Positions 15,360 to 16,070 of a stretch of 64,000 bases of DNA are shown here, piece by piece. A model generated the notes under the pieces. The model worked only from the letters and a program-made list of their open reading frames with translations. It searched no databases and was not told the origin of the DNA. The stretch is from Algoriphagus limi (lineage in GTDB: Bacteria > Bacteroidota > Bacteroidia > Cytophagales > Cyclobacteriaceae): assembly GCF_024919275.1 (NCBI RefSeq), contig NZ_JANWGH010000003.1, forward strand, positions 471,677-535,676, written 5' to 3'. The translations under genes were made by a program, and so were the position numbers. Numbering within the stretch: position 1 is the first letter of the stretch; each line of letters starts with the position of its first letter.

Positions 15360-15396
15360 AAAACAAAAAAAGCCCGCATTTCTGCGAGCTTTTTTA
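15360..15396 (-). terminator. Terminator copy 1 beside the tRNA-Leu 3' fragment
   Basis: Minus-strand hairpin AGCTCGCA-GAAA-TGCGGGCT followed by a seven-T run. 35 nt (15360-15394) are identical to 15848-15882, the terminator of the intact tRNA-Leu, and both are followed by TGTACCCAGG. Confidence 0.85.
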
Positions 15397-15407
15397 ATGT
15401 ACCCAGG

Positions 15408-15427
15408 CCTGTCTACCGTCAGGTAGG
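15408..15427. repeat. 20-nt insertion in the tRNA fragment (acceptor/T-stem junction)
   Basis: CCTGTCTACCGTCAGGTAGG, a partly palindromic segment (CTACC-GTCA-GGTAG) absent from the intact tRNA between ACCCAGG and GCCGG. Confidence 0.8.
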
Positions 15428-15433
15428 GCCGGA

Positions 15434-15455
15434 TTTGGCTGTCTGATCAGGTTTG
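15434..15455. repeat. 22-nt insertion in the tRNA fragment (T arm)
   Basis: Segment centred on the palindrome CTGATCAG (15443-15450), absent from the intact tRNA between GCCGGA and GTCGAA. Confidence 0.8.
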
Positions 15456-15461
15456 GTCGAA

Positions 15462-15480
15462 CGTGCCTTCGGCACGCAAG
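15462..15480. repeat. 19-nt hairpin insertion in the tRNA fragment (T loop side)
   Basis: CGTGCC-TTC-GGCACG hairpin plus CAAG, absent from the intact tRNA between GTCGAA and CCGGCACGAG. Confidence 0.82.
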
Positions 15481-15578
15481 CCGGCACGAGTGTTACCTCA
15501 TTGGTGTTTGAGACCATTTAGAATTAATTAGGACAAAAATATATTAGTTGGAATTGGCGCTTTTTTGACTTGGATTCA

Positions 15579-15833
15579 CTAAAAATCCTTACTCTCTAAT
15601 TTTTTCAAAAATTCTTTTCCACAACCACTTTTGAGATATTTTTCTCTTTTTCTAGCATCCTCTCGGCAGGAAACTTTTTCTGAAAAAATCAATCTAAATG
15701 GAGCATAGGGTTTTGTTGATCTACCTTTACCTGAGTTATGTTCTTGAATTCGTCTCTCGAGGTTATTTGTCATCCCAACATATATGTAATTTCTATGAAG
15801 GCTCTTGATTGCGTATACAAAAAACTCTTTCAT
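15579..15833 (-). CDS. Single-domain GIY-YIG nuclease, tRNA-linked
   Basis: Small endonuclease-like protein of 84 aa consisting only of the GIY-YIG fold. The motif appears as FFVYAIKS followed by YIYVGMT, then the catalytic Arg in NLERRIQEHN, and KREKYLKSG at the end, as in the URI/UPF0213 group. It lacks a DNA-binding extension, so it is not a full homing endonuclease. It lies on the same strand as, and 17 nt downstream of, the intact tRNA-Leu terminator, and upstream of the copied tRNA 3' half plus a second copy of that terminator. Thus the gene is framed by a direct duplication of the tRNA end, with a spacing of 488 nt. A role in the duplication is possible but unproven; it may also be a passenger. 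Confidence 0.9.
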   Translation of the reverse strand: MKEFFVYAIKSLHRNYIYVGMTNNLERRIQEHNSGKGRSTKPYAPFRLIFSEKVSCREDARKREKYLKSGCGKEFLKKLESKDF

Positions 15834-15847
15834 AACTAAAAATAATC

Positions 15848-15884
15848 AAAACAAAAAAAGCCCGCATTTCTGCGAGCTTTTTCT
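15848..15884 (-). terminator. Intrinsic terminator of tRNA-Leu(CAA), copy 2
   Basis: Minus-strand hairpin AGCTCGCA-GAAA-TGCGGGCT then seven T, directly after the tRNA 3' end. Identical over 35 nt to the copy at 15360-15394. Confidence 0.88.
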
Positions 15885-15886
15885 TG

Positions 15887-15970
15887 TACCCAGGGCCGGA
15901 GTCGAACCGGCACGAGTGTTACCTCATTGGTGTTTGAGACCAACGCGTCTACCAATTCCGCCACCTGGGC
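15887..15970 (-). tRNA. tRNA-Leu (anticodon CAA)
   Basis: Intact 84-nt class II tRNA. The acceptor stem GCCCAGG pairs with CCTGGGT (first pair G-T), discriminator A. D arm GCGGAATTGGTAGACGC, anticodon stem TTGGT/ACCAA enclosing the loop CTCAAAC, hence anticodon CAA, a variable arm (TGAGGTAACACTCG) and T arm GCCGGTTCGACTCCGGC. CCA is not encoded. It is flanked on the 5' side by a broken 5' half and on the 3' side by a terminator and a GIY-YIG gene. Confidence 0.95.
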
Positions 15971-16010
15971 AGGTACATTTTCAATTTCCAAGACAAGTTT
16001 GAGAACTGTA

Positions 16011-16070
16011 TTTGAGACCATCGCGCCTGCCTGCCGGCAGAGGCAGGTCTACCAATTCCGCCACCTGGGC
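16011..16070 (-). pseudogene. tRNA-Leu(CAA) 5'-half pseudogene with one insertion
   Basis: Minus strand from 16070: GCCCAGGTGGCGGAATTGG and TAGA match the intact tRNA exactly, followed by a 22-nt insertion (16026-16047), then CGCG and TGGTCTCAAA up to the anticodon loop, where similarity ends. No variable arm, T arm or 3' acceptor strand follows. It is complementary in extent to the 3' half at 15399-15516. Confidence 0.88.
16026..16047. repeat. 22-nt palindromic insertion in the tRNA D arm
   Basis: CCTGCC, core TGCCGGCA, GA, GGCAGG. It sits exactly between CGCG and TCTACC of the tRNA sequence; these are adjacent in the intact copy. Confidence 0.85.

What the first reader, a model, noticed from the sequence alone, without database searches (positions are those of the whole stretch)
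15360..16070. tRNA-Leu(CAA) split into 5' and 3' halves flanking an intact copy and a GIY-YIG gene
On the minus strand the order is: 5' half (16070-16011, ending at the anticodon loop), intact tRNA-Leu(CAA), terminator, GIY-YIG nuclease, then a 3' half starting at the anticodon arm (15516-15399) plus a second copy of the same terminator. The two halves break at nearly the same place and together make about one tRNA. This looks like a segment (intact tRNA + terminator + nuclease) inserted into, or duplicated across, the anticodon region of a second tRNA-Leu. A tRNA-targeting GIY-YIG mobile unit is a possible explanation; tandem tRNA duplication with decay is the main alternative.
Basis: partly seen in the sequence, partly recalled or inferred. 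Interest (0 to 1): 0.82.

Follow-up and report, generated by a model that had tools for sequence, protein, structure and literature searches.

The report
tRNA-gene-invading GIY-YIG mobile elements
A very small gene for a likely DNA-cutting enzyme has invaded a tRNA gene, leaving an intact tRNA beside displaced broken pieces; the same arrangement, aimed at different tRNAs, recurs across Bacteroidota and looks like a widespread, apparently undescribed kind of selfish element.

Summary
They overlap, carry inserts, and come from separate events. Near relatives have one uninterrupted tRNA-Leu(CAA) at this site and no GIY-YIG gene; one relative has only the nuclease and the 3' piece; others have only 5' pieces.

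The locus belongs to a family of small GIY-YIG nucleases. 191 of 247 distinct genes lie within 700 bp of a tRNA gene, all 191 on the same strand, as do 52 of 60 class-level loci. Nuclease clade predicts tRNA amino acid: 13 changes on the tree against 66-73 in shuffles. A displaced tRNA piece lies on the far side of the nuclease in 148 of 186 cases; 118 of those 148 hold a strong hairpin. Tandem arrays occur; one has ten copies in identical units. 182 of 295 Bacteroidia genomes have a homologue.

Best reading: a homing-type element that cuts a tRNA gene, inserts, and supplies a replacement tRNA end, working like phage SegB and fungal mitochondrial mORFs. Cleavage and mobility are inferred, not shown. 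Ten paper searches found no description.

The parts
15579..15833 (-). GIY-YIG nuclease gene, 84 aa
   Evidence: PF01541 E 2.3e-18; Y7, Y18, G20, R28, H32, E64 invariant in 15 rows, E64 90% or more in a second set of 20; dN/dS 0.09 against L118; AlphaFold pLDDT 91, nearest folds UPF0213 BH0048 and Slx1
15886..15970 (-). intact tRNA-Leu(CAA); no other intact copy of its anticodon arm found in the genome
   Evidence: of 5 matches to the arm pattern only this and the 3' remnant have the tRNA-Leu(CAA) arm
16008..16070 (-). 5' remnant: tRNA nt 1-23, palindrome, nt 24 to about 41
   Evidence: absent from empty sites L119/L120 and from L118
16026..16047 (-). 22-nt palindromic insert at the D-loop/3' D-stem junction of the 5' remnant
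   Evidence: only place in the genome that matches CTGYCKGCNRGCAG
15399..15516 (-). 3' remnant: tRNA nt 29-85 with three inserts
   Evidence: also present in L118/L037, absent from L119/L120
15462..15480 (-). 19-nt quasi-palindromic insert at the T-stem/T-loop junction of the 3' remnant
15434..15455 (-). 22-nt insert in the T-loop of the 3' remnant; weakly self-complementary
15408..15427 (-). 20-nt quasi-palindromic insert near the T-stem/acceptor boundary of the 3' remnant
15853..15877 (-). terminator-like hairpin after the intact tRNA
   Evidence: read directly
15364..15390 (-). second copy of the terminator-like hairpin, after the 3' remnant
   Evidence: read directly; aligned

Best explanation
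This is a chromosomal mobile element of homing type that targets a tRNA gene. Proposed cycle: the small GIY-YIG nuclease cuts an uninterrupted tRNA gene of its cognate isotype. The break is repaired from an element-bearing copy. The element inserts and brings a replacement tRNA end, so one intact tRNA is rebuilt and the resident end is pushed to the far side of the nuclease gene as a remnant. In one layout the order is tRNA - terminator - nuclease - 3' remnant; in the other it is 5' remnant - nuclease - tRNA. A palindrome within the remnant would keep it from being cut again. Because the rebuilt tRNA can still be cut, further rounds add copies and give tandem arrays. When the nuclease decays, only remnants stay. 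The window holds an active-looking element of the first layout plus the 5' remnant of another event. SHOWN by sequence: empty sites, separate events, linkage and strand bias, clade-isotype match, remnants, hairpins in remnants, arrays, broken copies, purifying selection. INFERRED: cleavage of the tRNA gene, repair-driven insertion, the protective role of the palindrome.
For: Empty sites with the same flanking genes. In 30 SAM_HAT-anchored loci, 4 carry GIY (one of them, L135, frameshifted) and 26 do not. Linkage: 84 of 89 named-genome GIY genes and 104 of 158 genus GIY genes have a tRNA within 700 bp, all 188 on the same strand; 191 of 247 when overlaps are allowed, all same strand; 52 of 60 class-level loci, all same strand (one of the 60 repeats a named locus). 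Chance in the own genome is about 0.7%, yet all 4 small GIY genes there adjoin tRNAs. Amino-acid label: 13 changes for 11 states against 66-73 in 100 shuffles. Remnants in 148 of 186, or 157 of 191 by a gapped method; hairpins of 7 bp or more in 118 of 148 remnants against 28 of 740 control windows and 41 of 191 intact tRNAs. Tandem arrays L018, L019, L058, L066 and L276, whose nine start-to-start 457-bp units are identical and rejoin the tRNA at nt 48. Degenerate GIY copies L012, L022/L135. dN/dS 0.09 from 5 nonsynonymous and 11 synonymous changes. Precedent: phage SegB, a GIY-YIG homing endonuclease, cuts inside tRNA genes and drives tandem amplification (PMC13096335, passages and section 10).
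Against: No cleavage or movement was observed. The intact tRNA beside the element equals the empty-site tRNA and should itself be cut, so some control or continual repair must be assumed. An 84-aa bare catalytic domain leaves little room for a long recognition site. The nearest folds after UPF0213 are structure-specific Slx1 nucleases, with I-TevI far weaker. 38 of 186 tRNA-linked genes show no remnant above threshold. 56 of 247 genes have no tRNA within 700 bp: 34 form one clade, and 22 lie elsewhere, some at contig ends or inside arrays, others unexplained. The palindrome is not unique to the element.
Confidence: 0.7

Rival explanations
1. Ordinary tandem tRNA duplication followed by decay, with a GIY-YIG gene that happened to lie nearby.
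For: Tandem arrays and decayed tRNA pieces exist; some 5' remnants occur without a nuclease.
Against: Same-strand tRNA linkage in 191 of 247 genes and the clade-isotype match need a functional tie. The remnant sits on the far side of the nuclease from the intact tRNA in 148 of 186, and 118 of these hold a strong hairpin.
Confidence: 0.06
2. A structure-specific nuclease (Slx1-like) that acts on hairpins or cruciforms. It keeps palindromes and tRNA-like hairpins in the genome rather than homing to a tRNA sequence; the palindromes are its real partner, as REP sequences are for RAYT transposases (REP/RAYT recalled).
For: Hairpins enriched in remnants; exact loop/stem junction in 53 of 111 inserts against 14.4 expected, rows not independent; a related clade of 34 GIY genes lies among other dispersed repeats, with shared sequence on both sides of the gene in 24 of 34; Slx1 chains rank just below UPF0213.
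Against: The clade-isotype match implies sequence targeting. 16 of 19 fetched dispersed palindromes have no GIY or tRNA nearby. The own genome has a single place that matches CTGYCKGCNRGCAG.
Confidence: 0.14
3. A domesticated host function: the nuclease maintains or regulates tRNA dosage, or is an anti-phage device, and the remnants are regulatory tRNA-like RNAs.
For: Purifying selection; homologues in 182 of 295 Bacteroidia genomes; in phages SegB-driven tRNA amplification serves counter-defence (PMC13096335, passages).
Against: Patchy presence at one site within a genus, broken copies, opposite layouts (5' or 3' remnant), runaway arrays of identical units.
Confidence: 0.1

Closest known systems
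SegB of T4-like phages (free-standing GIY-YIG homing endonuclease)
   Same: GIY-YIG nuclease beside tRNA genes; cuts inside tRNA genes; drives tandem amplification of the nuclease-tRNA segment (PMC13096335, section 10 and passages)
   Different: Phage, and the paper reports no preference for tRNA isotype. Here: bacterial chromosomes, a bare catalytic domain (84 aa in the window), clades tied to isotype, a displaced tRNA end, hairpin inserts in the remnant. No close phage relative found: 3 of 50,697 phage records at E<=1e-4.
Fungal mitochondrial mORF elements (atp6, atp9, cox2, nad3)
   Same: Endonuclease element inserts in a gene, supplies a replacement end and displaces the native end downstream (PMC3630166, passages; the atp9 case is GIY-YIG)
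   Different: Protein genes in mitochondria; here tRNA genes in bacteria, in both 5' and 3' layouts.
Integrative elements that restore tRNA 3' ends (recalled, no call)
   Same: Insertion in a tRNA gene that rebuilds it
   Different: Those use tyrosine recombinases; here a single GIY-YIG gene. Array units measured are 345-457 bp.
UPF0213 GIY-YIG proteins (1zg2, 1ywl)
   Same: Closest solved structures by sequence; 1zg2 is also the best fold match and 1ywl ranks 11th
   Different: Entries are titled hypothetical or UPF0213 proteins; tRNA linkage was not tested for them.

Membership tests
GIY-YIG nuclease superfamily | GIY-YIG catalytic domain over Pfam gathering score | tested here: met
   66.7 bits against 22.6
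GIY-YIG nuclease superfamily | Catalytic Tyr, Tyr, Arg, His, Glu conserved (roles recalled) | tested here: met
   Y7, Y18, R28, H32, E64 invariant in 15 rows; in a second set of 20 rows the first four are invariant and E64 is 90% or more
Free-standing homing endonuclease (intronless homing) | Gene occupies a site that is uninterrupted in relatives | tested here: met
   L119, L120; 26 of 30 anchored loci lack GIY
Free-standing homing endonuclease (intronless homing) | Nuclease cuts the empty allele | not testable with these tools
   needs a cleavage assay
Free-standing homing endonuclease (intronless homing) | Element-bearing allele is immune to its own nuclease | tested here: inconclusive
   118 of 148 remnants hold a strong hairpin, but the intact tRNA equals the empty-site tRNA
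SegB family | Close homology to SegB | not tested
   no direct comparison made; only 3 distant phage hits of any kind
Group I intron endonuclease TIGR01453 | Score over NCBIfam cut-off | tested here: not met
   20.4 bits against 56.05
Tyrosine-recombinase tRNA integrative element | Integrase gene within the unit | tested here: not met
   apart from GIY the longest ORF listed between the remnants is 65 aa and overlaps the tRNA; these short ORFs were not scanned against families

The most novel reading that the evidence does not exclude
A large family of minimal GIY-YIG elements, each clade specialised on one tRNA isotype, that survive by gene-end replacement. They displace an essential tRNA's end, supply a new one, and recruit dispersed palindromes to disarm the leftover target. 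A related clade has switched from tRNAs to dispersed repeats, so the family would be a transposase-free counterpart of REP/RAYT systems.
Probability: 0.25. Interest if true: 0.92.

Novelty: new variant of a known kind. Interest (0 to 1): 0.8.

Why it matters
If true, many Bacteroidia genomes (homologues in 182 of 295 sampled) carry a selfish element whose target is essential tRNA genes and whose insertion makes it hard to lose, because the element then encodes the working tRNA end. It would explain a class of tRNA pseudogenes and repeats in these genomes, extend the SegB idea from phages to chromosomes, and offer very small nucleases whose clades track tRNA isotype, so target recognition could be dissected directly.

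Tried and rejected
Rejected: one split tRNA (the pieces overlap and have separate histories). Rejected: palindrome as an exclusive part of the element (46 exact copies in 19 of 59 genus genomes; of 19 fetched, one per genome, only 3 lie in tRNA-Leu remnants). Weakened: a strict loop/stem-junction rule for inserts (53 of 111 exact, 14.4 expected; only 36 of 84 distinct inserts). Rejected: Rfam RNAs as targets of the tRNA-less clade (searches found none near its 34 members). Led nowhere: tying the copy number of the TTCGACTNCGCTCAGNCTGAC repeat to that clade; I compared by eye only, and G025 and G073 have clade members but no copy of this repeat. Phage vector: only distant hits, and the one opened has no annotated tRNA within 1.5 kb. 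Ten paper searches gave no description of this element; PMC2330249 is not held.

Rows dropped: of 277 GIY domains, 25 duplicates and 5 SAM_HAT-fetched rows before the 247; rows under 60 aa before the tree (247 to 228); rows without tRNA or with an undetermined tRNA type before the amino-acid test (228 to 170); short flanks before the remnant count (191 to 186). Genus loci were taken from a capped list of matches and class loci from the top of another capped list.

Full report
THE LOCUS. On the minus strand the window reads: 5' tRNA-Leu remnant (16070 to about 16008), intact tRNA-Leu(CAA) (15970-15886), terminator, GIY-YIG gene (15833-15579), 3' remnant (15516-15399), second terminator. Of five genome matches to the anticodon-arm pattern only the intact gene and the 3' remnant have the tRNA-Leu(CAA) arm, so this looks like the only tRNA-Leu(CAA). 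Both remnants carry inserts: a 22-nt palindrome at the D-loop/D-stem junction of the 5' piece, and inserts of 19, 22 and 20 nt in the T-arm and near the acceptor of the 3' piece. The 22-nt T-loop insert is only weakly self-complementary.

EMPTY SITES AND SEPARATE EVENTS. The nearest named match is Algoriphagus (L037, A. kandeliae, 95% GIY identity). Using the neighbour SAM_HAT gene as anchor, 57 of 59 genus genomes had a match and the best 30 loci were fetched. All 30 have tRNA-Leu(CAA) downstream. Four carry GIY (the own genome, L118, L131, and the frameshifted L135); 26 do not. At the score threshold 23 have neither GIY nor remnant, though L122, L126, L129 and L146 of these show a shorter, decayed 5' piece by eye. 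L119 and L120 (98% and 97% SAM_HAT identity) align to the window with the element absent. L118 has tRNA - terminator - GIY - 3' remnant and no 5' remnant; its contig has the same length as that of L037, so the two are apparently one genome. L123 has two tandem 5' remnants and no GIY. The window therefore stacks two events. Nine of nine GIY-fetched Leu(CAA) loci of the genus that I checked also have SAM_HAT upstream.

THE FAMILY. Of 277 GIY domains, 25 duplicates and 5 SAM_HAT-fetched rows were dropped, leaving 247, with 245 distinct domain sequences. A tRNA lies within 700 bp in 84 of 89 (named genomes) and 104 of 158 (genus), all 188 on the same strand. Allowing overlaps it is 191 of 247, all 191 same strand, 149 of them within 150 bp. 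Chance in the own genome is about 0.7% (37 tRNAs), yet its four small GIY genes sit by Leu(CAA), Leu(TAA), Ala(GGC) and Met(CAT), the last two at 182 and 197 bp. Sixty further loci, taken from the top of a class-level list, one per genome, gave 52 with a tRNA, all same strand, over Met, Leu, Ala, Arg, Ser, Glu, Asn, Asp, His and Phe; one of the 60 repeats a named locus. The named set was fetched by similarity to a Leu-linked protein, so its isotype mix is biased. On the tree the tRNA amino acid changes 13 times for 11 states against 66-73 in 100 shuffles (170 rows). Of the 56 unlinked genes, 34 form one clade with no Rfam RNA nearby; the other 22 include contig ends and inner array copies, and some I cannot explain, such as L021, L185, L187, L201 and L228.

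REMNANTS AND PALINDROMES. In 148 of 186 tRNA-linked genes a tRNA piece lies on the far side of the nuclease at a score above every null draw (null maximum 13.0). A gapped method gave 157 of 191. A hairpin of at least 7 bp occurs in 118 of 148 remnants, 28 of 740 control windows and 41 of 191 intact tRNAs with leader. The commonest insert resembles CCTGCCTGCCGGCAGGCAGG and recurs in Bacteroidota and in MAGs labelled Saccharibacteria (L045), Ignavibacteriaceae (L097) and Ignavibacterium (L105). Met, Thr, Val and Asp elements mostly show other inserts. Inserts fall exactly on loop/stem junctions in 53 of 111 cases against 14.4 expected; related rows are not independent. The same palindrome is also a dispersed repeat elsewhere. 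Leu 5' remnants align most often to nt 24, the palindrome, or just past it (nt 30-45); of 34 Leu 3' remnants 19 have their inner edge at nt 28-37.

ARRAYS AND DECAY. L018, L019, L058 and L066 show repeated [GIY + 3' remnant] units. L276 has an intact tRNA-Met followed by ten GIY copies; its nine start-to-start 457-bp units are identical and match the intact locus from tRNA nt 48 onward. L277 has eight copies after an orphan 3' half and no intact tRNA in the fetched stretch. Broken GIY copies occur at the window's site in relatives (L012, L022/L135). Window against L118: 5 nonsynonymous and 11 synonymous changes, dN/dS 0.09.

MECHANISM. The pattern fits homing with gene-end replacement. A cut in the tRNA gene is repaired from an element-bearing allele; the resident tRNA half is completed by the element and the other resident half becomes the remnant. 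The published SegB motif RAWTSGAAC reads on the other strand as GTTCSAWTY, which I note matches the T-arm GTTCGAATC (my inference; motif from PMC13096335, where it was found at 23 of 83 sites). That T-arm region is broken by the insert in most Leu elements with a 3' remnant. Identical arrays suggest that the intact tRNA can be acted on again. The open problem is how the rebuilt tRNA avoids constant cutting. The predicted fold (pLDDT 91) is closest to UPF0213 BH0048, the only match at E<=0.001, then Slx1, with I-TevI much weaker, so structure-specific cutting stays possible.

NOVELTY. Cutting of tRNA genes by a GIY-YIG homing endonuclease (SegB; PMC13096335, section 10 and passages) and displaced gene ends (fungal mORFs; PMC3630166, passages) are known. 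I found no report of this element in ten searches of an open-access library that lacks most subscription journals. I call it a new variant of a known kind.

Noticed in passing
L148, L150, L152, L193 and the other loci of the 34-member clade: A related clade of GIY genes without tRNA lies among other dispersed repeats (TTCGACTTCGCTCAGCCTGAC-like and GTCATTTCGACCAAAGGGAG-like); upstream and downstream flanks share sequence in 24 of 34 loci. In G028 7 of 30 copies of one repeat lie within about 500 bp of two tRNA-less GIY genes, L150 of the clade and L181, too short for the tree.
   Followed up: partly
L258, L259, L261, L262, L264-L275: The palindrome CCTGYCTGYCGRCAGRCAGG is a dispersed repeat that also occurs without tRNA or GIY nearby, in 16 of 19 fetched loci; 3 of these 16 lie inside an open frame of 100 aa or more.
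   Followed up: partly
L027, L170, L175, L200: Near-complete tRNA copies with odd anticodon calls (agct, agca, gcaa) beside Ala-type GIY genes.
   Followed up: no
L061:2749-2850: tRNA matched by Rfam over 102 nt that ARAGORN missed, beside two GIY genes; possibly an insert-bearing tRNA.
   Followed up: no
L277: Array of eight GIY genes headed by a 3' tRNA-Met half, with no intact tRNA in the fetched 4.4 kb.
   Followed up: no
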